Shown: positions 15,395 through 31,204, numbered from the stretch's first letter. The stretch: 38,400 nucleotides of DNA from Thiotrichaceae bacterium (GCA_015486375.1 WFRR01000122.1:1-38400), one strand, 5' to 3'. Numbers and translations: made by a program. The notes: generated by a model not told the origin, from the sequence alone.

Positions 15395-15408
15395 TGTAGT
15401 ACTCCTTG

Positions 15409-15573
15409 CTACTTATTTTTAAGTTTATCTACAGGGACAACGGGGGGTATTTTATCTTTATTTGTCACTGCTTGATCTGTTTGTTGGTTTAAGTCCTTTT
15501 TTCCAAAGGGCTTAGGTTCGGTTTGATGTTTGATGGTGTAACCCTGTTCTTTTGTGCCTTCTAGTACTGCCAT
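15409..15573 (-). CDS. Small basic tail-region protein, 54 aa
   Basis: The ATG at 15571-15573 opens a 54-residue frame ending with TAG at 15409-15411. It starts M-A-V-L-E-G-T-K-E-Q-G-Y-T and ends V-P-V-D-K-L-K-N-K. It is Lys, Gln and Pro rich and probably unstructured. It fits tightly between the tail terminator gene (stop 8 bases upstream) and the tail tube gene. AAGTAGG lies upstream as a possible ribosome binding site. Unknown function; small peptides at this place occur in several phage tail operons. Confidence 0.6.
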   Translation of the reverse strand: MAVLEGTKEQGYTIKHQTEPKPFGKKDLNQQTDQAVTNKDKIPPVVPVDKLKNK

Positions 15574-15581
15574 GCTTATGC

Positions 15582-17241: not shown

Positions 17242-17262
17242 AATTAACCGATCCTGTACATT

Positions 17263-17784: not shown

Positions 17785-19050
17785 TTATTTTGATTTCCAG
17801 AGTACTTTAGTCAACACTGCGACTGATTCATCGTGACGCATTCCAAAATCATGCGCGGAAATAACGCGTATCAAAGTTTGATTACGACTAAAAGCACTGA
17901 CTAATGTTTTAGTTGCGGGATCAATATAGCTGGCTTCTTGCGAGATTGAGATAGTCGTGTTTTCAGCATCACCAATGATTGCGTCTGTAAAATCAGTTAG
18001 ATAAATTTCTTCAGTGATTTGATTACTGGTTTTAAATGGGTAGCCCCGTAATGTACCATTAGCCATTTCTGGGAATACTTTATTACCATTACCATCAGAA
18101 ATATCCATCAAAAATATCTGAATCGTAGGAGTGAATATCCAACCTGCATTTAGCATTAAGACATTTTTATTGAGCAGTGCCACTTGCATACTGCCCAAAT
18201 CATTTTTGACTTTTTGCACCGTTGAGCCGTCCGAGGCAATCAATGTGTTAGCTGCTGTGACGGAATGACGCAGACCAACAGGTGTATTATTTTTACCGTC
18301 GCCTGAAATGAAGCTTAAATCTTCGCGCAAGCCCTGACTATTTACCATGTCGCGTACGATGATTGACTCAATCGCATCTGTAATACCGCTATAGTTAATC
18401 AGCTCATTTGAAATGGGTACTAATGTTCGCAAACTTTTTGCACTTAACTGTAAATCTCCAAAAGTTTGTGCCGATGCCTTGGTATCATCGCCTTCACTCA
18501 CATAAGATGATGTTGCTCCGCCAATCATTTTGGGAATAGTTAAGTTGCCACTTGGCATGGGTAAAATAGTGGGATTGAATGAACGCACAACAGATACGGG
18601 TGTGAGCAGTTCAATAATCTCTGTCATAAAAGCTTGCGGTACAAGCACTCCACCTGCTGAGCCTTGCGTCGTATTTAGTGCGGCTGCAACATCGGGATCA
18701 TTGAGCGTGTTTTCTGCATAGTTTGCAGCCTCGCGTCCACCATGACCCACTGCACCAATTGCCTTGACCATCCGCGCGACTTTTGCGCCCTTAACTTCAG
18801 GCTTTTTGGGCGTTGCTGCAAAACCTAATGTTCCCTGCACTTCGAGCGGTTTTGCGGCTTCTGCACGCATTTTTTCTGATGCTTCAGCCCGTTCAATTTT
18901 AGCGGTTAGCTGGTCGTTTTCTGCTTTAAGTGTCTCAAATTCTTGCAATTGCTCTGCACTTAATTCTGTGCCACCTGCTTCGATAGCAGCGAGTTGCTGG
19001 GCTTTTTCTGCATTAGCCGCACGTTTGCGACGCATATCGTTAATATCCAT
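17785..19050 (-). CDS. Major capsid protein, HK97 fold
   Basis: 421 residues. Residues 1-70 are a charged coiled coil (M-R-R-K-R-A-A-N-A-E-K-A-Q-Q-L ... L-K-A-E-N-D-Q-L-T-A-K-I-E-R) acting as the scaffold-like delta domain that the protease removes. The HK97-fold domain begins near residue 125 with T-T-Q-G-S-A-G-G-V-L-V-P-Q. Next come P-M-P-S-G-N-L-T-I-P-K and A-S-Y-V-like E-loop residues, then L-V-P-I-S-N-E-L-I. The A-domain end has G-Y-P-F-K-T-S-N-Q-I, all standard for this family. It lies next to protease and portal genes in the usual order. Confidence 0.95.
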   Translation of the reverse strand: MDINDMRRKRAANAEKAQQLAAIEAGGTELSAEQLQEFETLKAENDQLTAKIERAEASEKMRAEAAKPLEVQGTLGFAATPKKPEVKGAKVARMVKAIGAVGHGGREAANYAENTLNDPDVAAALNTTQGSAGGVLVPQAFMTEIIELLTPVSVVRSFNPTILPMPSGNLTIPKMIGGATSSYVSEGDDTKASAQTFGDLQLSAKSLRTLVPISNELINYSGITDAIESIIVRDMVNSQGLREDLSFISGDGKNNTPVGLRHSVTAANTLIASDGSTVQKVKNDLGSMQVALLNKNVLMLNAGWIFTPTIQIFLMDISDGNGNKVFPEMANGTLRGYPFKTSNQITEEIYLTDFTDAIIGDAENTTISISQEASYIDPATKTLVSAFSRNQTLIRVISAHDFGMRHDESVAVLTKVLWKSK

Positions 19051-19069
19051 AATTTCCTTGTCTTACTGA

Positions 19070-20020
19070 TTAAAGTTGCGCTTCCATTGCCATCGCCGCT
19101 GCTTGCGTACTAATAGGCATTTTCGGGGGATGCTGTTCAAGCACTGTTTGCATAATGCTGTTAGCCGCATCCTGTGGATAAGCCAGCCTGTCTGCTAAAC
19201 CTATCTCGATGGCTTTTGCACCGCGATAAGTTTTAGCTTCTGTTGTTTGAATTTCTTTAGGTTTTAAGTTGCGATTACGGGCAACCGTTTGTACAAATAA
19301 ATCGTATAAATCATCTAGCTCTGCAGCAGCTTCTTTAGTGACGGCTTCATAAGGTGATAAGTCGTTTTTATGATAACCACGATAGAAGCTGGTCATGACT
19401 AAACCCGCTTCATCCAGTGCTTTGCTCATATCGACATGTGTCGCAATCACACCAATCGAACCCACTCCTGAAGTCGTTGATACCACGATTTCATCAGCAG
19501 CACTAGCAAGCGCATAAGCGGCTGAATAAGCACTGTAATTAATAATGGCAGTGGAAGGTTTAATAGATCGGGCCTGGTAAATACGTTCAGCAAAATCAAA
19601 ACAGCCAATCGCTGAGCCCCCATTCGAATTAATATCATAAACAATGTGTTTAACCGCATCCGAATCTAAAGCTGCATCTAGCAAACCGCTAAGCTTTTCA
19701 TAGCTAGTGACTTCACTACACTCTGCATCATAGCTACCGCGACGCGTGGTTAAAATACCATGGACGGGTATCACCAATACGCCATTATTAGTTTGGTATT
19801 CTACGGTCTCCGCATCACGCCATTCGCTTAAATGGCTTGGTAGCGCACTAGGGTCTTGTGGATCCACAGTAGTGGCATTTTGAATCAATACATTAGTATC
19901 ACCTTTGCCTAGAATTTTAGGCAAAATAGCTTGCTGCACTGCATCACGTAACTGTGGTGTACACATCAAGGGCGTATTTAATAATTGTGAAGCGAGATAG
20001 GGGTAATTTATTTCTGGCAT
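19070..20020 (-). CDS. Prohead protease, S49 (SppA/protein C) family
   Basis: 316 residues. The S49 fold is visible: V-L-V-I-P-V-H-G-I-L (81-90), Y-D-I-N-S-N-G-G-S (128-136, oxyanion region), and A-Y-S-A-A-Y-A-L-A-S-A-A-D-E-I with Ser166 as likely nucleophile. It continues with G-S-I-G-V-I-A-T-H-V-D-M-S (187-199) and Lys218 in Y-H-K-N-D as the likely catalytic base. The Ser comes in A-Y-S-A-A-Y where SppA has A-A-S-G-G-Y. The enzyme would cleave the capsid delta domain and itself during head maturation. No separate scaffold gene is seen. Confidence 0.93.
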   Translation of the reverse strand: MPEINYPYLASQLLNTPLMCTPQLRDAVQQAILPKILGKGDTNVLIQNATTVDPQDPSALPSHLSEWRDAETVEYQTNNGVLVIPVHGILTTRRGSYDAECSEVTSYEKLSGLLDAALDSDAVKHIVYDINSNGGSAIGCFDFAERIYQARSIKPSTAIINYSAYSAAYALASAADEIVVSTTSGVGSIGVIATHVDMSKALDEAGLVMTSFYRGYHKNDLSPYEAVTKEAAAELDDLYDLFVQTVARNRNLKPKEIQTTEAKTYRGAKAIEIGLADRLAYPQDAANSIMQTVLEQHPPKMPISTQAAAMAMEAQL

Positions 20021-20122
20021 TTAAAAAAGTCCTTTAAGGATAAAAATCACAAGCTCTGGATTCAAGATAAGCGCCACCAATACAATGGTTCTAGTAATTC
20101 TCACTAAATGTTTATCATTCAT
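20021..20122 (-). CDS. Mini membrane protein, 33 aa, between portal and protease
   Basis: ATG at 20120-20122, overlapping the last codons of the portal gene; TAA at 20021-20023 directly abuts the protease ATG (20018-20020). The 33 residues start M-N-D-K-H-L-V-R-I-T-R followed by one hydrophobic helix (T-I-V-L-V-A-L-I-L) and a second short hydrophobic segment (L-V-I-F-I-L-K-G-L-F). The fit to the base between two essential head genes argues that it is translated. Function unknown. Similar tiny membrane peptides occur elsewhere in this phage (27215-27337, 21398-21586). Confidence 0.6.
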   Translation of the reverse strand: MNDKHLVRITRTIVLVALILNPELVIFILKGLF

Positions 20123-21380
20123 TTTTCGCAATTCTTTTAATGGCTTGCATTTCTTTATCGACCTTTTTATTAACGGCTTGTTTTTGGTAATCGCCTGCAT
20201 CTACCATATTCATTGGTTGCAGGTAAATATCACCACCTTGGTCTTTGCTTAGAGGGGGCAGGTTTTCTAAGCGACGTATATCGTTCACTGAGAGCCAACC
20301 CCATTGCCTACCTTGTGCATAAGAGTTAAAGCGGGTTGCCATATCACCCCTTAGTAGCCCCGAAACATTAAATTCAATGTAGTAATCTTTGCGTTCTTCT
20401 TGAGTGAGTAAGTCGCGCATCATAGCGGCTTCATGGCGTTTAACCCACGGCATTAATGAGTACATAACATACTGCAATGCTTGGCTTTCTATATTGGAGA
20501 AGGTCGCTTTATCCAATGATTGAATCATGTGCGGCGGGATATTATAAAGCCGCGCCACCTCATTAATACTGTGCGCCCGACTAGCAAGCAGTTGTGCATC
20601 TTCATTGCTCATGCTAATGGATTTAAATTTAAAACCGTCTTGCAATACAGCTATATCATCAGATGCCCCTAGACCGCGATACAACTTATTCCATTGTGCT
20701 TTTAATGCGTCAACCTGCTCTTTACCTAATGGTTTTGCACCTTGGACCCAATCCCGTTCTAGTGTGCCTTTTAGGTTTGTGCCATTCGAGAATATTTCGC
20801 TCGCATGTTGTTCAGTGGCCAACGCTAAACCAATTCCCTCACGTCCTGCTTGAATAGGTGATAAGCCTACATAAGCATTAGTTTTAAAAGCGGCGATATG
20901 GTGCATTTTGGAATAAGGCACATTAAATTCATTTTGCTCTAGCAGATCAAATACGGGCATACGATTACTATCGACTCGTACAATAACTTGCGATGGGTCA
21001 AGCGGGATAATCGCGTCAATTTCACCCGAGCCGCTACGCATGACGCGATTGTAACTATTGCCGCGCAAGCCCAGCGCGCCCTGCTGATATTCGTGGTAAT
21101 CAAAAGCAGTCATCCAGTCATTAGGAGCGTGGCGTAATTTATCAAATAGGCTGTGGTCAGTGGCTTTGTCTCGATTGCCTTTTTTGTCAGTGCGTCGATA
21201 AAGATTGCAAGGCAGTTGTGCTACGGATTCTGATAACAATCGAACAGCAGCATACACAGCAATAAAACCCATCGCGCTCTCGGGTGTGACGTGAATGCCT
21301 GACTTGCTAGCAGACGCACCCCCTAGCGCAGAACTAAACCAAGATGACGGGCGAGATACACCCGTACTGCGGGTCGCCAT
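20115..21380 (-). CDS. Portal protein, HK97 family
   Basis: 421 residues from the ATG at 21378-21380, preceded by AGAGGA; a GTG at 21398 would add six residues. Features of the HK97 portal family are A-V-Y-A-A-V-R-L-L-S-E-S-V-A-Q-L-P near the N-terminus, L-R-G-N-S-Y and H-H-I-A-A-F-K in the middle. The clip/stem segment N-E-V-A-R-L-Y-N-I-P-P-H-M-I follows, then L-T-Q-E-E-R-K-D-Y-Y-I-E-F-N and the late N-D-I-R-R-L-E-N-L-P-P. It forms the dodecameric ring at one capsid vertex and docks terminase. The C-terminus is Lys rich. Confidence 0.95.
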   Translation of the reverse strand: MATRSTGVSRPSSWFSSALGGASASKSGIHVTPESAMGFIAVYAAVRLLSESVAQLPCNLYRRTDKKGNRDKATDHSLFDKLRHAPNDWMTAFDYHEYQQGALGLRGNSYNRVMRSGSGEIDAIIPLDPSQVIVRVDSNRMPVFDLLEQNEFNVPYSKMHHIAAFKTNAYVGLSPIQAGREGIGLALATEQHASEIFSNGTNLKGTLERDWVQGAKPLGKEQVDALKAQWNKLYRGLGASDDIAVLQDGFKFKSISMSNEDAQLLASRAHSINEVARLYNIPPHMIQSLDKATFSNIESQALQYVMYSLMPWVKRHEAAMMRDLLTQEERKDYYIEFNVSGLLRGDMATRFNSYAQGRQWGWLSVNDIRRLENLPPLSKDQGGDIYLQPMNMVDAGDYQKQAVNKKVDKEMQAIKRIAKNE

Positions 21381-21397
21381 CAGTCCTCTAAAAAACA

Positions 21398-21586
21398 CTA
21401 AGTTTTATCAGCCGAGGTTTGTTTAAGTAGCATGATTTCAGCTCCAATGCTGACATACCAGCTATACCACATACCAAACAACCCACCAAGAATATAAGCA
21501 ACGATGGGTTGCCATTGATACAAGCCGTAAGTAAAGGCTATAAAGCCCATCAAACCCACCAGAAATGTAAATATATCGCTTAGCAT
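21398..21586 (-). CDS. Small two-helix membrane protein
   Basis: 62 residues with two hydrophobic helices (about residues 4-20 and 28-46) and a short Lys-containing tail. It is the first substantial gene after the second late promoter and its terminators, directly before the portal gene. The stop TAG overlaps a possible GTG of the portal gene. Small membrane proteins before the portal occur in many HK97-type phages but their role is unknown. A role as holin is possible but the lysis cassette at 28.3-30.3 kb already has a better candidate. Confidence 0.65.
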   Translation of the reverse strand: MLSDIFTFLVGLMGFIAFTYGLYQWQPIVAYILGGLFGMWYSWYVSIGAEIMLLKQTSADKT

Positions 21587-21689: not shown

Positions 21690-21723
21690 AAAAAAAGCCG
21701 ATGATTTCCGTCATCGGCTTTTC
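21690..21723. terminator. Bidirectional intrinsic terminator
   Basis: AAAAGCCGATGA and TCATCGGCTTTT form a perfect 12-bp stem with a six-base loop, and runs of A and T on both sides make it active in both directions. It is the second of two terminators between the late promoter at 21811-21863 and the portal operon. Confidence 0.85.
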
Positions 21724-21732
21724 TTTGGGCAT

Positions 21733-21770
21733 AAAAAAAGCCCGTCGCAGTAAAGTGACGAGCTTTTTTT
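21733..21770. terminator. Bidirectional intrinsic terminator
   Basis: AAAAAAAGC-C-GTC and GAC-A-GCTTTTTTT form a stem with one mismatch and a ten-base loop, flanked by seven A and seven T. On the minus strand it lies about 50 bases after the predicted start of transcription from the late promoter, as tR' follows pR' in lambda. Confidence 0.8.
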
Positions 21771-21810: not shown

Positions 21811-21863
21811 CGCTGAACTATAGTAATTTATACACTAAAAGTGGCACGCAAATCAACCACTTT
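21811..21863 (-). promoter_or_regulatory. Second late promoter, Q-type architecture
   Basis: Minus strand: TTGATT (-35, 21856-21851), an 18-base spacer, TATAAA (-10, 21832-21827), start near 21820, and TATAGT a few bases after it. 27 bases (21837-21863) are identical to 30637-30663, and similarity continues through the -10 and early transcribed region (15 of 20 positions). The element also contains the inverted arms AAAGTGG and CCACTTT. An identical spacer and a -10-like element just after the start are marks of Q-dependent promoters such as lambda pR', where Q binds between -35 and -10. Two terminators follow. Confidence 0.65.
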
Positions 21864-21915
21864 TTTATTTGATTTTTTTACTCACTGTTTTTACAGCATT
21901 TTTTAGGGATTATAT

Positions 21916-22749
21916 TTACTTTTCTGTACTGATGACTTGCTGCTGTACTTCAAGGCGGGTTTGACGATCCTTTTCTGATGCTTGCACGATAAAGACAAAG
22001 AAAGCAACAATGAACATTGATATAATCAGCCCTTTGCCTTTAGTCGGTATAGTTCTACCTGTTTCCGCATAGAAGAAGTTTCTAGGGGCGGGTAATACAA
22101 ACAAGGCTGAAAGCACCAACATACCTCCCGCCAATGGTGCAAAAATCATAAATACAACACCTAATATTAGCAAAACATTCCCCATTAATAATACTAATAG
22201 ATTACTGACTTTCTTCTTGATAAGTGAACCCGTTGAGTGGCTCATCATTTTTATTAAATCTAAAGCAGCAATACAGTCCCCCAGGGCAGAATGATCACCC
22301 CCTTGCAGTTTTTGCCAACGCTCTACCTCCAGATAAGCAGAATAATTGAGCATAACGCAGTTGAATTCATAATCTTTATAAAGAAAGGTTTTATTTGCTT
22401 TTTTAAATGATTGTTTAAGTAGGCGTTTATCGTATTTTGCATTGTAAATTAAGACCAAATTCCCCTTTAGTAGCTGGGTGATTTCATCATAATATGCGTC
22501 AATGGTGGGACAATCCTTTAAATCCTTATATTCAATACCATGAATAGCAGTGGCATCTGCGAATTCTCTTTTCTCTAAAGGCTTAAAACGCTGATTCATC
22601 AAGGTTTTGCCTGATGTATTGATAATGGCCAATTCAATAATTTCATCATCATCCCCTAGTCCCGTTGTTTCTGTGTCCAAGATTACACACTTATTAGGGT
22701 TTCTTAATAGCATTCTTGCCCACTCTATTACTTCTGCCTTTTCACTCAT
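21916..22749 (-). CDS. Membrane-anchored DEDDh exonuclease (DnaQ-like)
   Basis: 277 residues from the ATG at 22747-22749 (AAAGGG upstream; a GTG at 22758 would add three). Residues 20-170 are a DnaQ-like 3'-5' exonuclease. Exo I is I-L-D-T-E-T-T-G-L-G (Asp25, Glu27), Exo II is Y-N-A-K-Y-D (Asp107), and Exo III is H-S-A-L-G-D (His153, Asp158), so the DEDDh set is complete. Unusually, the C-terminal third holds three hydrophobic helices (about 182-202, 204-220, 240-257) and a short charged tail, so the nuclease should sit on the inner face of the membrane. It shares an upstream palindrome with the next exonuclease gene. It lies in the accessory block between terminase and portal genes, so it is not a core phage function; defence or superinfection exclusion is a guess. 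Confidence 0.85.
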   Translation of the reverse strand: MSEKAEVIEWARMLLRNPNKCVILDTETTGLGDDDEIIELAIINTSGKTLMNQRFKPLEKREFADATAIHGIEYKDLKDCPTIDAYYDEITQLLKGNLVLIYNAKYDKRLLKQSFKKANKTFLYKDYEFNCVMLNYSAYLEVERWQKLQGGDHSALGDCIAALDLIKMMSHSTGSLIKKKVSNLLVLLMGNVLLILGVVFMIFAPLAGGMLVLSALFVLPAPRNFFYAETGRTIPTKGKGLIISMFIVAFFVFIVQASEKDRQTRLEVQQQVISTEK

Positions 22750-22810
22750 ACTTATCACCCTTTATCTTTAAGAATCAAGTTACAAACATGATTTTAGTTT
22801 GTCATGAGCA

Positions 22811-22822
22811 ATATGTATACAT
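22811..22822. promoter_or_regulatory. Palindromic operator candidate ATGTATACAT (copy A)
   Basis: The perfect ten-base palindrome ATGTATACAT (22813-22822), within ATATGTATACAT, lies about 64 bases upstream of the membrane exonuclease start. The same core sits about 70 bases upstream of the BRCT exonuclease start (23842-23851). On the minus strand both are followed by ATATT and TCAT. Likely a shared regulator binding site; no regulator is identified. Confidence 0.5.
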
Positions 22823-22896
22823 GTGGACGCGCAAAGCCAGCTCAGCATTGTAAATCTGATGGCTATATTTCAGTAATTGAAGGAATGGACGAGGTT

Positions 22897-23772
22897 TTAT
22901 CCTCTCACCAAAGATAAAAAATCTTGCTCTGTCATTATTCTTATCGGTACTCCTTGCTTTGCAAGTTGCTCAACTTTCTTTTGCTTGCTGCTAATTTTAT
23001 TACCTCTTAGTGCGGCAACTTCAAAAGAACCAACTACAAGTATGGTTATGGTCTTTTTTCTAATGGTGGGCGAAACATAACAACCTGCTTCTGCGGCAAT
23101 TGCAGCAATTTCTCGACGTATTATACTTAGCTTCCCTGTAAAAACGACTTCCTCGCCAAATAAATCCCCATCAGGATTGCCTTCTATTTTGATTACCTTT
23201 AAATAACTGTTATCAGGTGAGTGGATTTGCATAATAGACTTAAAGGAAAGCTGCAACCACTCTTCAATCGTTTTTCCTGACTCTTTAATTGCCGCCAAAA
23301 GTATCATGCCTGATGCTCTCGCATCCTCCAAAGCATCATGATGCTGAAACTCAAACTTAATATAAGCAGCAAGATTAGCCAAACCATAACCTGCATAGGC
23401 GAATTGCTCCCATGTCCGTCTTGCGACTCTAGCACTATCCAGCCAAACACATTGAGGTGGAGGCACATTAATTTTAGCAAAAGCTTGTGTGAGTGCATTT
23501 TTATCAAAGATAGTATGACTAACCACCACAGGAAATTCTGATAAATATCGACTTAATTTGGAGCTAACCTCTAAAAAGGATGGAGAATCCTTAACATCAT
23601 CCTCGTCTATGCCATGAATATCAATATTCATCCAATGAAACCACGTATCAGGGTTAACTAATGTTGACCATGAATCAACTTCTTTTCCATTCTCGAATGC
23701 CACGACCCCTATCTGACAAATACTACCTTGATCAGGATTTGCTGTTTCCACATCAATTACCACGAATCGCAT
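22897..23772 (-). CDS. DEDDh exonuclease with C-terminal BRCT domain
   Basis: 291 residues. The exonuclease domain covers residues 1-165: V-V-I-D-V-E-T-A (Asp7, Glu9), S-H-T-I-F-D (Asp90) and H-H-D-A-L-E-D-A (His145, Asp150). A linker follows, then a BRCT domain from about 206 to the end (V-V-F-T-G-K-L ... I-A-A-E-A-G-C-Y-V-S-P-T-I-R-K-K-T). This two-domain type resembles DNA polymerase III epsilon-like proteins found in bacteria and some phages. The BRCT domain suggests binding to DNA ends or nicks. AGGAGAAATATTT precedes the ATG, a good ribosome binding site. It has its own upstream palindrome. Its partner is the membrane-anchored exonuclease downstream. Confidence 0.9.
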   Translation of the reverse strand: MRFVVIDVETANPDQGSICQIGVVAFENGKEVDSWSTLVNPDTWFHWMNIDIHGIDEDDVKDSPSFLEVSSKLSRYLSEFPVVVSHTIFDKNALTQAFAKINVPPPQCVWLDSARVARRTWEQFAYAGYGLANLAAYIKFEFQHHDALEDARASGMILLAAIKESGKTIEEWLQLSFKSIMQIHSPDNSYLKVIKIEGNPDGDLFGEEVVFTGKLSIIRREIAAIAAEAGCYVSPTIRKKTITILVVGSFEVAALRGNKISSKQKKVEQLAKQGVPIRIMTEQDFLSLVRG

Positions 23773-23836
23773 AAATATTTCTCCTGTTAACTACAACATC
23801 TACCAATTGTCAGATTTTAATCTTAGTGATCTATGA

Positions 23837-23856
23837 TTAATATGTATACATATTAA
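23837..23856. promoter_or_regulatory. 20-bp perfect palindrome (operator copy B)
   Basis: TTAATATGTATACATATTAA reads the same on both strands. Its core ATGTATACAT is shared with 22813-22822. It sits in the intergenic region upstream of the BRCT exonuclease gene, next to the remnant of another exonuclease gene. Confidence 0.6.
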
Positions 23857-23857
23857 A

Positions 23858-23920
23858 GTTCAGATTAATAATTTCATCATTATTATTACCTAACCCCTTT
23901 GTTTCTGTGTATAAATTCAA
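23858..23920 (-). pseudogene. Remnant of a third DnaQ-like exonuclease gene (Exo I region)
   Basis: Minus-strand translation gives Y-T-E-T-K-G-L-G-N-N-N-D-E-I-I-N-L. The membrane exonuclease has D-T-E-T-T-G-L-G-D-D-D-E-I-I-E-L at its Exo I motif, and the DNA is clearly related (both contain AATAATTTCATCAT and GTTTCTGTGT). The first catalytic Asp has become Tyr, and no open frame surrounds the segment. It is probably a decayed paralogue left by recombination within the accessory block. Both this segment and copy B of the palindrome lie together, so an older exonuclease gene may have been partly replaced. Confidence 0.55.
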
Positions 23921-23936
23921 GCATTGGATACTCTAA

Positions 23937-23972
23937 ATATTTAGCCGCCACAGTTTTGTGTTGGCTAAATAT
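23937..23972. repeat. 10-bp inverted repeat (strong hairpin) between divergent genes
   Basis: ATATTTAGCC (23937-23946) and GGCTAAATAT (23963-23972) pair perfectly around a 16-base loop. It lies midway between the minus-strand exonuclease gene and the plus-strand antitoxin/KilA-N operon. It could be a terminator remnant or an operator; there is no T run. Confidence 0.4.
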
Positions 23973-24056
23973 AACCGATATCATAGTTAATTCAGGCACT
24001 TAATTTTATTAATCAAATCCATATTTGATTTTTATGCTAATTCCTAATGAATTATA

Positions 24057-24112
24057 TAGACTGTATTAGCTAATTAGAGCTATAATAGCTAAAATACAAG
24101 GAGGATATGATG
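24057..24112 (+). promoter_or_regulatory. Promoter and ribosome binding site of the antitoxin-KilA-N operon
   Basis: TAGACT (24057-24062) with a perfect TATAAT at 24081-24086, 18 bases between. The -10 region is flanked by TAGCTA palindromes (TTAGCTAATTAGAGC and ATAGCTAAAA), a likely operator for autoregulation by the Phd-like protein. AAGGAGG at 24098-24104 is a very strong ribosome binding site. Confidence 0.6.
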
Positions 24113-24271
24113 AAAGTTACATCAACAGAACTTAAATTAAGGCTAGGCAAATACCTGAAAGAATCTTTTAGAGACCCTGTAATAATCAGCGTTAGAGGGA
24201 ATAAAGAAAATGTACTTTTATCCTTTCATGAATACGAGAGATTAAAGTCAGCAGAGAAACAGGAAAAATAA
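24110..24271 (+). CDS. Phd/YefM-type antitoxin, no toxin partner seen
   Basis: 53 residues from the ATG at 24110 (another ATG directly before it is too close to AAGGAGG). M-K-V-T-S-T-E-L-K-L-R-L-G-K-Y-L-K is the usual start of Phd/YefM antitoxins, and P-V-I-I-S-V-R-G-N-K-E-N-V-L-L-S-F-H-E-Y-E-R-L matches the DNA-binding half (P-V-x-I-T-x-x-G). Only a short tail follows, so most of the C-terminal toxin-neutralising part is missing. No RelE, Doc or YoeB-like gene follows; the next gene on the strand is the KilA-N gene 75 bases on. It may be an autonomous repressor, a solitary antitoxin against host toxins, or a partner of the KilA-N protein. Confidence 0.8.
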   Translation: MKVTSTELKLRLGKYLKESFRDPVIISVRGNKENVLLSFHEYERLKSAEKQEK

Positions 24272-24346
24272 AGATATTCAGTACCTTAAAAGAGCTGTAG
24301 GAAGCCCCTTTAAGGCTAATCAACATGATCTAAATAGGAGATCACT

Positions 24347-25351
24347 ATGACCAGTAATAATATTAACACACCGTTAACACATCGTTCATTTAAAAAATTC
24401 AACATACCCCAAAGGCAAAGCGACGGCTATTTATCAGCAACAGCTATGTGTAGTATGACGCAAAGAAAATTTAGTACTTACTTCAGATCATCAAAAACTA
24501 AAAAATATTTAACAGCACTATCGACCGATGTGCAAATTTGCACATCGGATTTAATTCAAACACTTAAGGGGGGAAATGAAGAGCAAGGAACATGGATTCA
24601 TCCTAAAGCTGCAATCCATTTTGCACAATGGCTTAGCCCTGAATTTGCTGTTCAGGTAACTAATTGGGTATACGACTGGATGACCATAGGTAACACTCCA
24701 TCATTCCAACAAAAAATTCATATACCTACATCTTTAATCCCTCTCAAATACCACGGTTCGACCTTATTATTGGTACAGCACAATAATGCACTCTGGGTTG
24801 ATTTTGAAAGCGTTGTCTCTGCTGCAACACTGGATTATCGCTACCAATCCAAACGCGCTACGCTGGAAACCTTGGATTTAGGTAAGGTTGAAGGTAAATT
24901 ATCCATTATTAGCATGGATAATTTAGCCCTTTGGCTAGAGGGTATTAATATTAAATGCGTTAGTTTAAAGAAACAGTATGTAGTGACTCGTACCAAATAT
25001 GAATTGCATTCTTTTCTTACTGCAAAGATTGCAGAATTACCGCAGCTTATTGAGTCAGAGCCTGAGCAAGTTGAGATGAAGCATTTAGGTCATTACAGCA
25101 TCGATACTGTCATGAAAGAAGTAGCTGAGTTCCATCCTGATTGGATTGTGATTAACCGCAAGGCACTGTCAGAAGATGTTGAGTATGTCGCTGATATATT
25201 AATGGAAACGCAAGCTAAAATTAGACAGCAAGTTGATCCTTTAATTACAATTTTAGGTACACAAGATACTGATAATGAAAAAGAAGCAGAAGAGTTCTGG
25301 AAGCGACGCAAGGCGAAAGCACTTAAGAAACTTCAAAGAGCTATCGCTTAG
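24347..25351 (+). CDS. KilA-N domain protein
   Basis: 334 residues. The KilA-N DNA-binding domain occupies about residues 10-125: D-G-Y-L-S-A-T-A-M-C (20-29), Y-F-R-S-S-K-T-K-K-Y and G-G-N-E-E-Q-G-T-W-I-H-P-K-A-A-I-H-F-A-Q-W-L. That last segment, with W-V-x-D-W-M after it, is diagnostic. The C-terminal 200 residues are mixed alpha/beta with a basic helical end (F-W-K-R-R-K-A-K-A-L-K-K-L-Q-R). TAGGAG precedes the ATG. It is on the opposite strand to all surrounding late genes, with a terminator behind it, so it is probably expressed from the lysogen. KilA-N proteins are often phage anti-repressors or nucleic acid binding; the role here is not known. Confidence 0.9.
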   Translation: MTSNNINTPLTHRSFKKFNIPQRQSDGYLSATAMCSMTQRKFSTYFRSSKTKKYLTALSTDVQICTSDLIQTLKGGNEEQGTWIHPKAAIHFAQWLSPEFAVQVTNWVYDWMTIGNTPSFQQKIHIPTSLIPLKYHGSTLLLVQHNNALWVDFESVVSAATLDYRYQSKRATLETLDLGKVEGKLSIISMDNLALWLEGINIKCVSLKKQYVVTRTKYELHSFLTAKIAELPQLIESEPEQVEMKHLGHYSIDTVMKEVAEFHPDWIVINRKALSEDVEYVADILMETQAKIRQQVDPLITILGTQDTDNEKEAEEFWKRRKAKALKKLQRAIA

Positions 25352-25385
25352 TTAGAAAAATATAAATAAGATACTATCTATACCT

Positions 25386-25423
25386 AAAAAGCCCAAAGAA
25401 CCTTATGTTTCTTGGGCTTTTTT
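25386..25423. terminator. Bidirectional intrinsic terminator
   Basis: AAAAAGCCCAA ... TTGGGCTTTTT forms a long stem with A and T runs on both sides. It separates the convergent KilA-N (+) and terminase large subunit (-) genes and should stop transcription from both. Confidence 0.85.
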
Positions 25424-25441
25424 GTTTTTATAACCCATTGT

Positions 25442-27211
25442 TTAGATATAAATTTCCTCTTCATAGGCAGATTCAGTAGATTCTGTTTCACCACCTAGCA
25501 TTGCACCCACTGCCATTATCAATGACACGGCAGGGTCAATTTTTTCTGATGATTTTTTCTTGTCAGGTTTTACGTTTTCGGCAGGATCAACCACGGCAAC
25601 CACATTGCCCATCGCCCATTTTAGGACAGGATTACCATCATGGTGCAGTTGCTGGGACAAATACAGCCGCTCTAGCTCTTTGGTTGCAGGTGACATAGAT
25701 TTATAGCCCTGCCCCATTGCAACTAATTTATCTTGTAATTCTTCTTTTAAATCTTTAACAAATTGATGAATTGACCAGCGATCTACCGCAATATTAACCA
25801 GTGGTAGATCGTCTAATAGCCCTGTTTGTCCTGATAACCCTGAAATATCTGCGTGGATAAAGTTGTAATCGACTACATTGCCCGGTGTAGCAACCAGCCA
25901 ACCTTGTTCCACCCAAAGGTCGTAAGGTAAACCGCGCTCTTTGACAGCACGCAATACTGCTGCCTCGGGTATCCACGAACGCGACCATGCCCGTTTTTCA
26001 CCGTTGGGAAACACAGCAATCAAACTAAAGCTAGTCAGGTCACTGATACTACCTAAATCTAAACCGCCATAAACCTCACCTGCCCCTTTGAATGATTCGA
26101 GTTCATAGCTTGCCTTACATTGATCCCATTCTTCCAAGTTGCACCAGCTTATCGCATTAGAACGCCATACATTAAAGTTTTTAGTTAATACTCCAAAGCG
26201 AAACACGGGACTATTCAAAGCCTTGGTGACTTCTTTGCGTAGATAATCACGTTTGACTGATCCGCGCATCACGGCTTTACCTTTGCTATCTACACCAATT
26301 TTATACTCTAAATTAGGATTAGCTTTAATCCAGTTTTTTTCATTCTGAAAGTCATCTCCTGCATCCAAAGCGTAAATAATGCAGAAAAAGTTATCGTCCT
26401 GATATTTCCCTTCTAGTACATTGCAACCGTATTCTCGCTTCTGTAAACAAATAGATTCTTCTTTAGGTCGCACTCTTCCTGCTGTTGTGATTGCCCAACA
26501 CAAAGGTTGTGAACGTGAACCCATCCCTGAAATAATAACATTGTAGATTTCAGCAGTTTTATGAGCATGCAATTCATCAACTAACCCTGCGGAAGGGTTT
26601 GCACCGTCAATTGCCTCTGCATCGCGGGATAACGGGATAAAAAAACCATCATTTGAAGGGGCTTCAATTAGGCTTTCAGAGTCTTTTATTTTAATTAAAC
26701 GCTTAACTGAGGGCGCGTAACCAAGCATTTTTCGAGCATCGCGCCACAATCGTTTAGATTGTTCTCTGGTGGTTGCTGCTGCATAGACCTCGGGTGCGCC
26801 TTCGCCATCGAGCAGCAACATAAACCCACCTATACCTGCTAATTTAATGGTTTTACCGTTTTTACGTGCGACTTCTTCATAAACTTCATTGTATCGTCGC
26901 AATCCATCCTTGTTTTGCCAACCGAAAACCACGGATATTATCCAACATTGCCACGCCTCAAGCTGCAATTGCTTACCGCGCCACTCACCTTTATAGTGTT
27001 TTAGGTAGTAAAAGAACACTAAAACCCGTGCTGCTTCGTATTCATTAAAGCTTAAACCACGCAAATGCGCGTTTTCTCGGTCCTTTTCGTCCCTTTTTAC
27101 TGCCAATTTGACCCATTTACAAGCAACAACTGTCCCTGATATTACGTCTTTAGCGTATTCTCGAGCAAGCTTAAGGCAATGCTGAGCTATTTTTTGTTGT
27201 TGTGGGTTCAT
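25442..27211 (-). CDS. Terminase large subunit
   Basis: 589 residues. The ATPase domain has the Walker A variant A-R-K-N-G-K-T (115-121) and Walker B G-L-V-D-E-L-H (209-215), which is the HK97-type terminase pattern. The C-terminal nuclease domain has G-G-L-D-L-G-S-I-S-D-L-T (first Asp), D-R-W-S-I-H-Q-F and a final I-D-P-A-V-S-L-I-M-A (third acidic residue). It pumps DNA into the prohead and cuts it. The start follows the stop of a 40-residue membrane peptide by three bases. Confidence 0.96.
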   Translation of the reverse strand: MNPQQQKIAQHCLKLAREYAKDVISGTVVACKWVKLAVKRDEKDRENAHLRGLSFNEYEAARVLVFFYYLKHYKGEWRGKQLQLEAWQCWIISVVFGWQNKDGLRRYNEVYEEVARKNGKTIKLAGIGGFMLLLDGEGAPEVYAAATTREQSKRLWRDARKMLGYAPSVKRLIKIKDSESLIEAPSNDGFFIPLSRDAEAIDGANPSAGLVDELHAHKTAEIYNVIISGMGSRSQPLCWAITTAGRVRPKEESICLQKREYGCNVLEGKYQDDNFFCIIYALDAGDDFQNEKNWIKANPNLEYKIGVDSKGKAVMRGSVKRDYLRKEVTKALNSPVFRFGVLTKNFNVWRSNAISWCNLEEWDQCKASYELESFKGAGEVYGGLDLGSISDLTSFSLIAVFPNGEKRAWSRSWIPEAAVLRAVKERGLPYDLWVEQGWLVATPGNVVDYNFIHADISGLSGQTGLLDDLPLVNIAVDRWSIHQFVKDLKEELQDKLVAMGQGYKSMSPATKELERLYLSQQLHHDGNPVLKWAMGNVVAVVDPAENVKPDKKKSSEKIDPAVSLIMAVGAMLGGETESTESAYEEEIYI

Positions 27212-27214
27212 TTT

Positions 27215-27337
27215 TTAGCTAAATACCTTTAGCAGCAATGGCATAAGTGTTTCTGCTAGCGAAATAACACCCCATATTGCTAGCAAAGACCACAACAAAG
27301 CCTGATTTTCTTTAATAATTATCCCGAGTTCTTTCAT
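27215..27337 (-). CDS. Mini membrane protein, 40 aa, before terminase large subunit
   Basis: ATG at 27335-27337 with AGGA six bases upstream; TAA at 27215-27217, three bases before the terminase ATG. The 40 residues start M-K-E-L-G-I-I-I-K-E-N-Q followed by one hydrophobic helix of about 20 residues (L-L-W-S-L-L-A-I-W-G-V-I-S-L-A) and a short amphipathic end. An in-frame ATG at 27370 would add 11 residues. Possible coupling to terminase translation. Unknown function. Confidence 0.6.
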   Translation of the reverse strand: MKELGIIIKENQALLWSLLAIWGVISLAETLMPLLLKVFS

Positions 27338-27448
27338 CGTTTTTCCTAGTTTAATTATGTTATAATTCATGAGGTTAATGTTTCCTTTGATTTGGTTATT
27401 AAAATATTGACTGCCTTAAATGCGGTGTGGGAACTTTATTTTAGGCAT

Positions 27449-27479
27449 AAAAAAGCCAGTCGCTGTGACTGGCTTTTTT
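27449..27479. terminator. Bidirectional intrinsic terminator inside the packaging operon
   Basis: AAAAAAGCCAGTC and GACTGGCTTTTTT pair perfectly (13 bp, five-base loop). It lies between terminase small and large subunit genes, both on the minus strand, so late transcription must pass it. Weak -10-like TATAAC around 27360 on the minus strand may reinitiate transcription downstream. Confidence 0.85.
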
Positions 27480-27499
27480 GCGGATGGCTTTCTATCTTT

Positions 27500-27928
27500 T
27501 TAAAGATCAAGCAGATCGGTTTGCTGCGGATTGTTATTGGCTTGCAGAGCTACGCGGGCGGGGGGTGTTAGACCGAGCTGCTTGGCATAACTCAGAATCT
27601 GTTTTAATAAACTTTTCCATGCGGTGAACGTGGCTGTTTCCGCCTCGTAACCCTTTGGGCTTTTTTGTGTTATCCCTACATCATCTAGCTTTATATCTAG
27701 CTCTATAAATCGTGCAACCATTGAGCAGTAAATACCGAGTACATCCTTGTCTAATTCATTGATTATTTTATGTCTACCCAATGATTCAACCAGTTCTGGC
27801 CAATGCTTTTTGGCAAGCGGAGTTAGATAATCGGGGAATTCTGGTAGTTGGTTAAGTGTTGCATCCTCCACCAAGCTAGTTTCAAAGTCGGGGTGATCGG
27901 TAATTTTAGCGACCGCTGTATTTTCCAT
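27500..27928 (-). CDS. Terminase small subunit, P27 family
   Basis: 142 residues. L-T-P-L-A-K-K-H-W-P-E-L-V-E-S-L-G (36-52), L-D-K-D-V-L-G-I-Y-C-S-M-V-A-R-F-I-E-L and S-P-K-G-Y-E ... A-W-K-S-L-L-K-Q-I-L-S-Y-A-K-Q-L-G-L-T-P-P-A-R form the P27-type small terminase pattern. It recognises the packaging site and brings DNA to the large subunit. Located between HNH and large subunit genes as usual, but with a terminator behind it. Confidence 0.88.
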   Translation of the reverse strand: MENTAVAKITDHPDFETSLVEDATLNQLPEFPDYLTPLAKKHWPELVESLGRHKIINELDKDVLGIYCSMVARFIELDIKLDDVGITQKSPKGYEAETATFTAWKSLLKQILSYAKQLGLTPPARVALQANNNPQQTDLLDL

Positions 27929-27939
27929 TGTATTTTCCT

Positions 27940-28293
27940 TTATTTAGTTTTTGGTTGGCGACGATTACCAAAGCCTCCATCATATTTAGCTGTTTTTCGG
28001 TTGTGGTGACTACTGCAAAGTGCGCGTAGATTGTCATAATCCCAAAATATTTCTAAGTCACCCTTGTGCGGTTTAATGTGGTCCACTACATTTGCAGCCA
28101 CCACACGCCCTTCTGCTTCACAATCATGACATAAGGGGTTCATCATCAAAAAGTGCTGTCTGAGTTTCTGCCATTTGTAGTTATAACCCCGTTTTGTAGA
28201 GCTTTCTCGCTGCTGATTAGGGTCATGCTTACTTAAATCTAAAATGGGCAAGTCAGGTGTACTGTAGTGCATTTGCTTAAGTGCTTTGGGCAT
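27940..28293 (-). CDS. HNH endonuclease
   Basis: 117 residues. The zinc site is C-H-D-C (55-58) and C-S-S-H-H (93-97); the catalytic motif is V-V-D-H-I-K-P-H-K-G-D (69-79) with N88 and H97. This is the small HNH type that neighbours terminase in HK97-like phages and is known there to be needed for DNA packaging with terminase. It starts three bases after the stop of the upstream membrane protein gene. Confidence 0.92.
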   Translation of the reverse strand: MPKALKQMHYSTPDLPILDLSKHDPNQQRESSTKRGYNYKWQKLRQHFLMMNPLCHDCEAEGRVVAANVVDHIKPHKGDLEIFWDYDNLRALCSSHHNRKTAKYDGGFGNRRQPKTK

Positions 28294-28295
28294 GA

Positions 28296-28583
28296 TTACT
28301 CTCGGTTATTTTCGGGTGGTTTGCCCTTGTAGGCAATATCATCAACACGTCCTTCTGCTTCTTTGAGCATAATATTTTCTTTTTCCATGATATTAAAAGC
28401 CAAGACTAATTTTAAGCGTGTATTGCGTATACCTTGCATCAAGTAACTGCCCGCCAGCCGATACAGGGCGTACCATTGTATCGCCACCACAACTATCAAA
28501 ATAACGCTTAAAGGTTGAGAAGAAAGGTTGGCAACAAGATCAAGCCATTTAGCAATTTCGGTCGGACTTATATCTAAGCTCAT
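28296..28583 (-). CDS. Small membrane protein of the lysis region
   Basis: 95 residues: a soluble N-terminus (about 23 residues), one hydrophobic helix (L-S-V-I-L-I-V-V-V-A-I-Q-W-Y-A-L-Y), and a charged helical C-terminal part ending K-P-P-E-N-N-R-E. It overlaps the candidate holin gene by 35 bases. A single helix followed by a coiled segment is compatible with an inner-membrane spanin, but there is no Rz1-type lipobox gene nested in it that I can see. Position between holin and HNH supports a lysis-related role only weakly. Confidence 0.5.
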   Translation of the reverse strand: MSLDISPTEIAKWLDLVANLSSQPLSVILIVVVAIQWYALYRLAGSYLMQGIRNTRLKLVLAFNIMEKENIMLKEAEGRVDDIAYKGKPPENNRE

Positions 28584-28908
28584 AGTCTGCTCTCATTTTT
28601 TTAGCTTCTTGTCGTTGTGCATCCTTGTTTTTAATTTTGATTGAGCTGATCCAGCCATCAACTGAAATAATTCCCAATATCGCCACTGTGATTGCCATAA
28701 ATGCCAACAATATCTCCCGCGCGTTAATAATAGGAAAATTTAATATCCATACCCCTAAAACGTAAATACCCACAATCGAAAAGGCTAGTTCTAATAAAAA
28801 CATGCCTTTACGACAAATTCCTCGACTGCGATTGTATTGATAACGCCCAAAAATTAGTCCAAAAATAGCTAGCACAAACATCGTGAGTAAAAAAGATTGA
28901 TCTTGCAC
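28549..28908 (-). CDS. Candidate holin, three membrane helices
   Basis: 119 residues with hydrophobic helices at about 6-20, 36-57 and 64-84, and a strongly charged C-terminal tail (K-I-K-N-K-D-A-Q-R-Q-E-A-K-K-M-R). Three helices with a charged cytoplasmic end is class I holin topology. It lies next to the endolysin and PLA2-like genes. No family motif is decisive, so the call rests on topology and neighbourhood. It would make membrane holes that release the endolysin. Confidence 0.6.
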   Translation of the reverse strand: MQDQSFLLTMFVLAIFGLIFGRYQYNRSRGICRKGMFLLELAFSIVGIYVLGVWILNFPIINAREILLAFMAITVAILGIISVDGWISSIKIKNKDAQRQEAKKMRADYELRYKSDRNC

Positions 28909-28919
28909 TACTAACTCCT

Positions 28920-29429
28920 TTAGCTATGATGCCAGTAGTGCTTTTTACCAATTGCAGTAACGACTGCATGATATTTTTGCGGTAGATTATCAATAGACCA
29001 TGAATAAGCACGACGATAAATAGCTGAACTTTCGTATAGCTTTCGACGAAATGGACTAAGTTTTTCAGGATGATTACGATATTCTTCAATCTTAATAGCT
29101 AAATTAGCTTCTAAATTATTATCTGATTGCATTCTGTGTCTAGGGCTTTTCTGATCCAAGGGAATACTCCATTCCGCGTCGTGAATATGGCATGGTTCAC
29201 GCAAATCAAATGAAAAAAGATGAGTTAGCAATACAGCAATCCATCGATTTACACCTACCCAGCCGCAGCCATTCGATTCAAATTCATTCAGTATTAGATT
29301 TTGTGCTGTTACAGAGAATGAGTATTTATATTCATCCTCAGATATTTTTTTCAACGGCTCTATTTTGCTACGTTTTCTATTTAAGAGCGGTTTAGCTAAT
29401 CCCAGTATTTTCATTAACTTATCTTTCAT
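28920..29429 (-). CDS. Phospholipase A2-like protein in the lysis cassette
   Basis: 169 residues. N-G-C-G (53-56) and P-C-H-I-H-D-A-E-W (79-87) correspond to the calcium-loop and the C-x-x-H-D catalytic helix of PLA2-like proteins, with His83 and Asp84 as the catalytic pair. A following S-D-N-N-L-E-A-N-L (102-110) carries the later Asp, and F-R-R-K-L-Y-E-S-S-A is like the R-R-x-x-Y-Y-x-A end of phage and bacterial members. There is no signal peptide. It starts at the last base of the endolysin gene (both at 29429). Predicted activity is hydrolysis of membrane phospholipid, possibly to help disrupt membranes at lysis. Confidence 0.6.
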   Translation of the reverse strand: MKDKLMKILGLAKPLLNRKRSKIEPLKKISEDEYKYSFSVTAQNLILNEFESNGCGWVGVNRWIAVLLTHLFSFDLREPCHIHDAEWSIPLDQKSPRHRMQSDNNLEANLAIKIEEYRNHPEKLSPFRRKLYESSAIYRRAYSWSIDNLPQKYHAVVTAIGKKHYWHHS

Positions 29430-30289
29430 TAGATGCAGTCCCGATTAAGGCGTTTAAAGATTTTTTTACCATTTTTTGTAAATTGAAGCTCAGAATTGTT
29501 TAAGCAGTAATGTGTGTCTGTATCCAATTTATAAAATTCTGGCACGTATTTTTGCAGACGGAGTAAGATTTTTTTACGATCATCAACACCATTAAATCCA
29601 CCATTAATGGCAATGGTGATATAAAGAAAATCATCATCTAAAGCACGTTTATTGATATTTCCCCATGCACTGCCATGCACCCAATAAAACATCGCGGAAC
29701 GTACAATGTGTTCCAATTCTGTCACTAAAACAGACTTGGGTAGAGCTTTGCCAATGTGGTTAAAATATTTTCTGTAGTTCTCATCATGTGTGATTTCAAT
29801 TAAGCCGCGGCCATGCGCTGCTGCACCGCCTCTGTAGTTATTCCACCGAGCCGGGATTGAACCATCCCGATTTCTGTATTCTTCCACGGCGCAAAAACGG
29901 TCCGATTCATGGCAAATCTGAGCTAAAAAGTGAAAAACGATCAGCGGGTGGGTCATCTTGTAGTAGTCCAACCACTTGTTAATTTCGTCCGCAAATTGTT
30001 GATAAGTGACCTTGGGTGAATTAGGTGTTTTGTAGAATAATCCGCGCACATCACAATTTACAGAGGCAATGACCTTGATTGCTTTCGCGGTCACAACAAA
30101 AGGCTTAGGACTGAGTTCATCTAAATTAATGCGATCCAGCAAATTTTCGTTTTTCATTTTTTGATAAATAGTTGCAAAATTTCTCAAAGATGCTTTAGTT
30201 TGTTTACCATACAAACCATCTGCTTTTATACCTAAAGCAGATTGCAATTGAGCCGTGAGCGTGGCTTTTTCTTTACCTTTTAGTTGCAT
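29429..30289 (-). CDS. Endolysin: peptidoglycan-binding domain plus GH19 lysozyme
   Basis: 286 residues from the ATG at 30287-30289 (AGGA upstream; an ATG at 30322 lies inside a terminator T-run). Residues 8-45 are a PG_binding_1 domain (L-Q-S-A-L-G-I-K-A-D-G-L-Y-G-K-Q-T). The GH19 domain covers about 95-250. It contains F-L-A-Q-I-C-H-E-S-D-R-F with Glu128 as catalytic acid, E-E-Y (137) as second acidic site, H-G-R-G-L-I-E-I-T-H-D-E-N-Y (159-172) and A-I-N-G-G-F-N-G. No signal peptide is seen, so export needs a holin. It cleaves the glycan strand of peptidoglycan. First gene after the late promoter and two terminators. Confidence 0.93.
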   Translation of the reverse strand: MQLKGKEKATLTAQLQSALGIKADGLYGKQTKASLRNFATIYQKMKNENLLDRINLDELSPKPFVVTAKAIKVIASVNCDVRGLFYKTPNSPKVTYQQFADEINKWLDYYKMTHPLIVFHFLAQICHESDRFCAVEEYRNRDGSIPARWNNYRGGAAAHGRGLIEITHDENYRKYFNHIGKALPKSVLVTELEHIVRSAMFYWVHGSAWGNINKRALDDDFLYITIAINGGFNGVDDRKKILLRLQKYVPEFYKLDTDTHYCLNNSELQFTKNGKKIFKRLNRDCI

Positions 30290-30322
30290 TGTTTTTCCTG
30301 TTGTTTTGATAAAATCGAGCAT

Positions 30323-30363
30323 AAAAAAAGCCCAATCAAGGAGAATTGATTGAGCTTTATTTT
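30323..30363. terminator. Intrinsic terminator before the endolysin gene
   Basis: AAAGC-C-CAATCAA and TTGATTG-A-GCTTT pair with one mismatch; on the minus strand the hairpin ends in seven T. Second of two terminators between the late promoter at 30611-30663 and the endolysin start. Confidence 0.75.
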
Positions 30364-30369
30364 GTCCAC

Positions 30370-30406
30370 AAAAAAGGCGTATTACGAAATAATCATAATA
30401 CGCCTT
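30370..30406 (-). terminator. Intrinsic terminator (tR'-like)
   Basis: AAGGCGTATTA and TAATACGCCTT form a perfect 11-bp stem with an 11-base loop; on the minus strand it is followed by a T run. It lies about 210 bases after the predicted late start site. The stretch 30407-30610 holds no gene I can support; it contains a run of C at about 30458 and would be the late leader RNA. Confidence 0.8.
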
Positions 30407-30610
30407 ATGGTTGAAATTCTTTGTTTTTTCTATATTTATTAGTACTTTGAGCTTACCCCCCCCCTTAAAAATCTCAATCCGCCGACAAAGCTATATCCCC
30501 CACGGTCTAGCTAGTAAAAGGCTGTAGGGATACAACTACCCCCTACCTTTGATTTTTTTATTTGATGAAAGTTTGGCGAAATTGAAAGCGATCTGGTTCG
30601 ATTGAAAATA

Positions 30611-30663
30611 ATCTGCACTCTAGAAAAATATACATCAAAAGTGGCACGCAAATCAACCACTTT
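30611..30663 (-). promoter_or_regulatory. First late promoter, Q-type architecture
   Basis: Minus strand: TTGATT (30656-30651), 18-base spacer, TATATT (30632-30627), start near 30620, then TAGAGT just after. 27 bases (30637-30663) are identical to 21837-21863, including the whole spacer apart from its last few bases and the inverted arms AAAGTGG / CCACTTT. It lies 14 bases behind the stop of the 175-residue gene, just as lambda pR' lies behind Q. Two terminators and a 300-base untranslated leader follow before the endolysin gene. Confidence 0.7.
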
Positions 30664-30676
30664 ATTTTTAGCCCCT

Positions 30677-31204
30677 TTATTGCTCATAAAGATTGCGACG
30701 TAAATGAGATGCAACATCTGCTTCAGAGCTATGCAGTAAAGCAATTGCATCATCAACAATGGGTCGAATTGCTTTCGCTTTTGAACGACCGACACAGATT
30801 CGATTTGCTAACCACCGATCGCTTATCTTACCACCTTTGCCACAGTAACCACACCATGCGGCTAACCATAGCGGCGGGAACAAGTCACGACGACCAAGCT
30901 CTGTTTCAAATGACATCGATCTAAAGTGATTACGCTGATCAAAGCCGACACGATAAGCCAAATCTGAAAAATCCCCTAGTATCATCTGTTGATCGTTGGG
31001 GTTAACAAAAGCAAATACAAAAGCTGTTTCAAATGACCTCAGTCCTACCAAGGCCGATAACACATCTTCTCTTGATATACCTGTCACTATACACTTGGCT
31101 CCTTTGTTTTGAGATGCAGCAGATACTGCCATTGTTTTAAAATCCCCCGACGATTTAGGATTCATCATTGTTAATAACTCAATGATACCTTTTGATTCAG
31201 CCAT
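30677..31204 (-). CDS. Candidate late gene regulator in the position of Q
   Basis: 175 residues, soluble, mixed composition. A Trp/Cys-containing stretch W-L-A-A-W-C-G-Y-C-G-K-G-G-K-I-S-D-R-W-L (about 112-131) could be a small helical or metal-binding region. It is followed by a basic helix (V-G-R-S-K-A-K-A-I-R-P-I-V-D-D-A) that resembles a helix-turn-helix. I do not recognise a known antiterminator family by sequence. The location is telling: last gene before a duplicated late promoter with an untranslated leader and terminators, the arrangement of Q-pR'-tR'. GGGGA precedes the start and it has its own promoter. Functional call is inference from context. Confidence 0.55.
   Translation of the reverse strand: MAESKGIIELLTMMNPKSSGDFKTMAVSAASQNKGAKCIVTGISREDVLSALVGLRSFETAFVFAFVNPNDQQMILGDFSDLAYRVGFDQRNHFRSMSFETELGRRDLFPPLWLAAWCGYCGKGGKISDRWLANRICVGRSKAKAIRPIVDDAIALLHSSEADVASHLRRNLYEQ

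What the first reader, a model, noticed from the sequence alone, without database searches (positions are those of the whole stretch)
21811..30663. A Q-type late promoter module is duplicated 8.8 kb apart and splits the late operon
Seen: 27 identical bases at 21837-21863 and 30637-30663, with similarity running on through the -10 and the early transcribed region (about 50 bp in all). On the minus strand both read TTGATT, 18 bases, TATAAA or TATATT, then a -10-like TATAGT or TAGAGT just past the predicted start. Both are followed by strong terminators. Known: lambda-type Q proteins bind between -35 and -10 of pR' and act on polymerase paused at a -10-like element, then read through tR'. Inference: the 175-residue gene ending 14 bases before the first copy is the Q analogue, and one factor controls two late units (lysis plus packaging, and head plus tail). 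A duplicated pR'-tR' module serving separate segments is not something I know to be described for this phage type.
Basis: partly seen in the sequence, partly recalled or inferred. Interest (0 to 1): 0.88.

Follow-up and report, generated by a model that had tools for sequence, protein, structure and literature searches.

The report
Late phage promoter module present twice
A prophage carries two copies of a compact late promoter, each followed by back-to-back stop signals for transcription, so one viral protein probably switches on two separated gene blocks (lysis and DNA packaging; head and tail), the second copy sitting just after an inserted gene island that cut the block in two.

Summary
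On the minus strand a 57-nt element occurs exactly twice (30669-30613 and 21869-21813; 48/57 identical, 27-nt identical core), nowhere else in the host genome, far beyond chance. Similarity covers only -49 to about +8 of a sigma70-like promoter (TTGATT-18-TATATT/TATAAA, then TAGAGT/TATAGT), then stops. Each copy is followed by two tandem intrinsic terminators before the first gene. The second module stands at the island's downstream edge. Best explanation: a Q-like antiterminator, probably the 175-aa protein encoded just upstream of copy 1, acts at both modules; copy 2 restarts late transcription after the island. That protein matches no known Q family and has no detectable relatives, so its role rests on position alone. 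One antiterminator serving two such modules is precedented by Pseudomonas AlpA. Nine distinct known-Q modules (158 loci) and phage AS1 show no second copy. New variant of a known kind; nothing functional was tested.

The parts
30613..30669 (-). Late promoter module copy 1 (P1): -35 TTGATT 30656-30651, -10 TATATT 30632-30627, -10-like TAGAGT 30622-30617, predicted start about 30620
   Evidence: 57-nt repeat, 84% identical to copy 2; promoter scan
21813..21869 (-). Late promoter module copy 2 (P2): -35 TTGATT 21856-21851, -10 TATAAA 21832-21827, -10-like TATAGT 21822-21817, predicted start about 21820
30637..30663 (-). 27-nt identical core of copy 1, inverted repeat AAAGTGG-N12-CCACTTT flanking the -35 and the start of the spacer; proposed antiterminator-binding element
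   Evidence: unique in the genome apart from copy 2
21837..21863 (-). 27-nt identical core of copy 2, same inverted repeat
30327..30406 (-). Two tandem intrinsic terminators between P1 and the endolysin gene (30406-30374, 30358-30327)
   Evidence: terminator scan; folding -19.6 and -15.8 kcal/mol
21690..21770 (-). Two tandem intrinsic terminators between P2 and the first head-unit gene
   Evidence: sequence; folding -19.9 and -19.9 kcal/mol
30677..31204 (-). 175-aa protein, candidate Q-like antiterminator (last gene before P1)
   Evidence: position only; no hit in any library or collection
25442..30322 (-). Late unit 1: endolysin, small membrane proteins, HNH, TerS, TerL
   Evidence: Pfam and PHROGs
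25386..25425 (-). Terminator ending late unit 1 after TerL; forms on both strands
   Evidence: folding -17.0 on minus and -16.3 on plus strand
21916..25351 (.). Inserted island: 54-aa Phd/YefM-like ORF and KilA-N gene on plus strand, two DEDDh-exonuclease genes on minus strand
   Evidence: absent from the TerL-portal junction of AS1, PG1, PY54 and KS9
21398..21586 (-). First gene of late unit 2: 62-aa membrane protein, equivalent in position to AS1 gp3 and similar by eye
   Evidence: phrog_502; AS1 gp3 translation
150..21586 (-). Late unit 2: 62-aa gene, portal, protease, capsid, head-tail, tail genes
   Evidence: portal by Pfam and PHROGs; protease, capsid and tail assigned from ORF lengths, order and translations

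Best explanation
The prophage has two copies of one antitermination-type late promoter module. RNA polymerase starts at each and, unaided, stops at the tandem terminators within about 50-300 nt. A phage antiterminator, most likely the 175-aa protein made at the end of the early operon, binds the inverted repeat that brackets the -35 and reaches into the -35/-10 spacer, loads onto the early paused polymerase and lets it read through. Both late units (lysis plus packaging; head plus tail) thus switch on together. Copy 2 restores late transcription downstream of an island that interrupted the ancestral TerL-portal operon. Shown: the repeat and its limits, the terminators, gene order, the insertion relative to four other phages. 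Inferred: promoter activity, binding, read-through, identity of the factor.
For: Only two copies in the genome; repeat limited to a promoter footprint. Zero of 9 mismatches fall in the 27-nt core; a run this long has P = 0.016 under random placement. Both copies are followed by two strong terminators before the first gene; P = 0.014 that 8 intergenic minus-strand terminators would load both gaps this way. Further terminators lie inside or at the end of unit 1, near 27454 and 25390. Same Q - promoter - terminator - lysozyme - HNH - TerS - TerL - small gene - portal order in AS1 without the island. Pseudomonas Q loci show a GC-rich terminator within about 110 nt of the Q stop. Precedents: AlpA element at -25 to -20 with two terminators before PA0807 (PMC7969949); GafZ binds a palindrome between -10 and -35 (PMC11150451).
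Against: The 175-aa protein matches no Q family and has no relatives, so nothing but position links it to the element. The inverted repeat is centred near -30, overlapping the -35, whereas the 21Q element is two direct 6-bp repeats between -35 and -10 (PMC6606751). The -10-like sequence starts 10 nt after the start of the -10, closer than I infer for phages lambda and 21 (about 14 nt, from recalled lambda sequence and the +3 to +15 bubble of 21Q). Hexamer matches are not above chance by themselves. The P values are modest and post hoc.
Confidence: 0.7

Rival explanations
1. The inverted repeat is the site of a late transcription activator (working like P2 Ogr or Mu C) that turns on two late promoters; the terminators mainly insulate against upstream transcription and are leaky.
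For: Perfect inverted repeat and weak -35 TTGATT; phages with activator-controlled late genes have several late promoters sharing one site (own knowledge of P2 and Mu).
Against: Both terminator pairs lie downstream of the promoter and upstream of the first gene, so they would stop its own transcripts; the site covers the -35 rather than lying upstream of it; the conserved part extends past the start site.
Confidence: 0.13
2. The repeat is a repressor operator on two constitutive promoters; a repressor bound over -43 to -18 keeps both late units off in the lysogen.
For: An inverted repeat overlapping the -35 is a classic repressor site layout (for the repeat); a single gene could silence both.
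Against: It does not explain tandem terminators after each promoter; no third copy near the repressor region at 35-37 kb.
Confidence: 0.07
3. Copy 2 is a by-product of how the island was assembled (duplication or recombination at a short repeat) and is not a working promoter; unit 2 is transcribed by antiterminated polymerase running on from P1.
For: The island itself carries duplicated pieces, with the same ATGTATACATATT box before both exonuclease genes and a remnant of one exonuclease gene. Processive antitermination could cross the TerL terminator.
Against: Core 100% conserved while flanks within the module diverged 30%; the diverged positions keep -10 and -10-like motifs; terminators differ between copies, so the whole region was not copied together.
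Confidence: 0.1

Closest known systems
Lambdoid Q / pR'-tR' late modules (lambda Q PF03589, phage 21 Q PF06530, phage 82 Q PF06323)
   Same: Regulator-like gene as last early gene, adjacent sigma70-like promoter, -10-like element near the start, terminator before the first late gene
   Different: Candidate regulator unrelated by sequence to any Q family; element is an inverted repeat around the -35; two modules in one phage, against none duplicated in 9 distinct Q modules checked
AlpA antiterminator of Pseudomonas aeruginosa (PMC7969949)
   Same: One antiterminator acts at two separate promoters sharing an element, each followed by terminators before the first gene (one at alpB, two at PA0807)
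   Different: Two separate chromosomal loci (cell-lysis genes and PA0807-PA0829); here both modules lie in one prophage 8.8 kb apart and serve its late genes; relation to AlpA was tested only through the family libraries
GafZ of the Caulobacter gene transfer agent (PMC11150451)
   Same: Antiterminator bound through a palindrome in the -35/-10 region; phage-derived late gene cluster
   Different: GafZ has a single target promoter and works with GafY and IHF; palindrome lies within the spacer
Marinobacter phage AS1 (MK088078)
   Same: Identical order Q - promoter - terminator - lysozyme - HNH - TerS - TerL - small membrane gene - portal
   Different: Single late module, uninterrupted operon, annotated Q of another kind
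Multi-promoter late regulons of phages P2 (Ogr) and Mu (C)
   Same: One phage factor drives several late promoters sharing a site
   Different: Activators acting upstream of the promoter, no promoter-proximal terminators (own knowledge)

Membership tests
Q-type pR'-tR' late module | Promoter directly after the last early gene and before lysis genes | tested here: met
   Copy 1 lies between the 175-aa gene (stop 30677) and the endolysin gene
Q-type pR'-tR' late module | -10-like pause element in the initial transcribed region | tested here: inconclusive
   TAGAGT and TATAGT present at both, but 10 nt after the start of the -10, closer than inferred for lambda and 21; pausing cannot be tested
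Q-type pR'-tR' late module | Intrinsic terminator between promoter and first late gene | tested here: met
   Tandem pairs at both copies
Q-type pR'-tR' late module | Q binding element between -35 and -10 | tested here: inconclusive
   Right arm CCACTTT falls at -24 to -18, left arm lies upstream of the -35; binding untested
Q protein families PF03589, PF06530, PF06323 | Sequence match of the regulator to the family profile | tested here: not met
   No Pfam hit at E up to 10; no significant match to an alignment of 5 Q proteins
AlpA-type two-operon antitermination | Two promoters share an element and each precedes terminators | tested here: met
AlpA-type two-operon antitermination | Factor-dependent read-through at both promoters | not testable with these tools
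   needs reporter or RNA-seq

The most novel reading that the evidence does not exclude
A new kind of phage late antiterminator, unrelated to the three known Q families and recognising an inverted repeat around the -35, whose promoter module was duplicated to rescue a late operon split by an inserted gene island, making portable promoter-terminator modules a route by which phages tolerate insertions in their late operon.
Probability: 0.35. Interest if true: 0.68.

Novelty: new variant of a known kind. Interest (0 to 1): 0.5.

Why it matters
If right, the pair defines the antiterminator's binding element by comparison of two promoters, without experiments, and gives a ready test for an antiterminator with no known relatives. 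It also shows a simple way for a phage to accept an inserted island in the middle of its late operon: copy the 57-nt promoter module downstream of it.

Tried and rejected
Looked for relatives of the 175-aa protein in viral contigs, phages, plasmids, 84,980 species genomes, and 63 family, 369 class and 399 phylum genomes: none. Weak hits at E 0.07-0.08 in two family genomes contain stop codons and were dropped. AlphaFold from the single sequence gave pLDDT 40, so no fold search was made. The core was sought elsewhere: none in viral contigs; two matches in genome contigs, near the number expected by chance, lie in coding sequence in unrelated context. Sigma54 promoter considered because the plus strand reads TGGCACG; rejected because the -12 GC is absent. 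MerR-type activation rejected: 18-nt spacer, dyad centred on the -35 side. The repeat as a hairpin terminator: folds at only -8 to -10 kcal/mol with a 10-nt loop, weaker than the real terminators. Rfam found no RNA family.

Full report
What is there. The window is a whole 38.4-kb contig of a 2.67-Mb genome. On the minus strand it reads as a temperate tailed phage: replication genes (methylase, DnaB), a 172-aa and a 175-aa ORF of unknown kind, endolysin, small membrane proteins, HNH, TerS, TerL, then an island, then a 62-aa membrane protein, portal, protease, capsid and tail genes. No integrase was recognised in the ORFs read.

The repeat. A 57-nt element occurs at 30669-30613 and 21869-21813 with 48 identities, 27 of them consecutive. 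It is the only long interspersed repeat in the window besides one pair at 37722/38051. The longest exact repeat in 60 Markov surrogates was 18 nt, and the genome has no further copy at up to 3 mismatches. The similarity covers a sigma70-like promoter from about -49 to +8 and then falls to background. The core is an inverted repeat, AAAGTGG-TTGATTTGCGTG-CCACTTT, whose middle begins with the -35 hexamer. None of the nine mismatches lies in the core (P = 0.016 for such a run if mismatches fell at random), and the mismatches near the start keep the -10 and -10-like motifs. This pattern fits selection on a protein-binding site, though the test was chosen after seeing the data.

The terminators. Each copy is followed, before the first gene, by two back-to-back intrinsic terminators of -16 to -20 kcal/mol. 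From the predicted starts they begin at about +50 and +97 (copy 2) and +214 and +262 (copy 1). Only a few other clean intergenic terminators exist on this strand: near 27454 inside unit 1, near 25390 after TerL, and two in the early right part. If eight intergenic terminators were scattered by gap length, both module gaps would receive at least two in 1.4% of trials. A promoter followed directly by strong terminators and then by essential late genes makes little sense without antitermination.

The island. Marinobacter phage AS1 has the same order, Q - promoter - terminator - lysozyme - HNH - TerS - TerL - gp3 - portal, with TerL and gp3 overlapping by 7 nt; PG1, PY54 and KS9 also have TerL next to portal or one small gene before it. 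In the window 3.9 kb separate TerL from the gp3-like 62-aa gene: a terminator that forms on both strands, a plus-strand KilA-N gene with a 54-aa Phd/YefM-like ORF (resemblance by eye), and two minus-strand exonuclease genes, each preceded by the box ATGTATACATATT. GC is 38% for its genes and 30% for the intergenic part against 40-41% elsewhere. Module 2 lies between this island and the 62-aa gene. The simplest history is insertion into an ancestral continuous operon, with a copied promoter module restarting late transcription.

The regulator. The 175-aa gene is in the position of Q. It matches nothing in Pfam, PHROGs or NCBIfam at E up to 10, nothing in the PDB, and no genome or phage searched. 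Known Q families also lack sequence similarity to each other (PMC7171158), so absence of similarity does not exclude the role. By eye the stretch DRWLANRICVGRSKAKAI in the C-terminal third resembles a helix-turn-helix; the structure prediction was too poor to confirm it.

Base rate and precedent. Among 158 viral-contig loci with lambda-type or Pseudomonas-type Q genes, which reduce to 9 distinct downstream modules, none has a second copy within the downstream DNA held (up to 10 kb): best score 17 against 30 here. AS1 has none. The sample is small and narrow. The closest precedent is AlpA, one antiterminator acting at two promoters that share an element between -35 and -10, with terminators before each first gene (PMC7969949). 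GafZ uses a palindrome in the same region (PMC11150451). Searches of the open-access papers found no phage with a duplicated Q module, which is weak evidence given the limited library.

Verdict. Observation confirmed; the antitermination reading is the best supported (0.7), the identity of the factor is inferred from position, and the arrangement is a new variant of a known kind rather than a new kind.

Noticed in passing
22810-22822 and 23839-23851: The palindrome-containing box ATGTATACATATT stands before both exonuclease genes of the island and nowhere else in the window (expected 0.14); a shared operator or cassette border.
   Followed up: partly
23854-23940: Apparent remnant of the 5' end of the 280-aa exonuclease gene upstream of the 291-aa one, suggesting the island grew by cassette duplication.
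   Followed up: no
24108-24272 (+): 54-aa ORF with good ribosome site resembling Phd/YefM antitoxins, directly before the KilA-N gene.
   Followed up: no
30464-30456 (-): Run of nine G in the leader RNA of copy 1, a possible slippage-prone tract.
   Followed up: no
37722-37784 and 38051-38113: 63-nt repeat at 97% containing a terminator, in the early right region.
   Followed up: no
27212-27499: TerS-TerL gap holds a terminator and a small membrane-protein ORF of about 50 aa, where AS1 has the two genes touching.
   Followed up: no
21682-21742, 30315-30332, 27450: Several terminators are followed by the same TTTTTTTATGCC-like tail.
   Followed up: no
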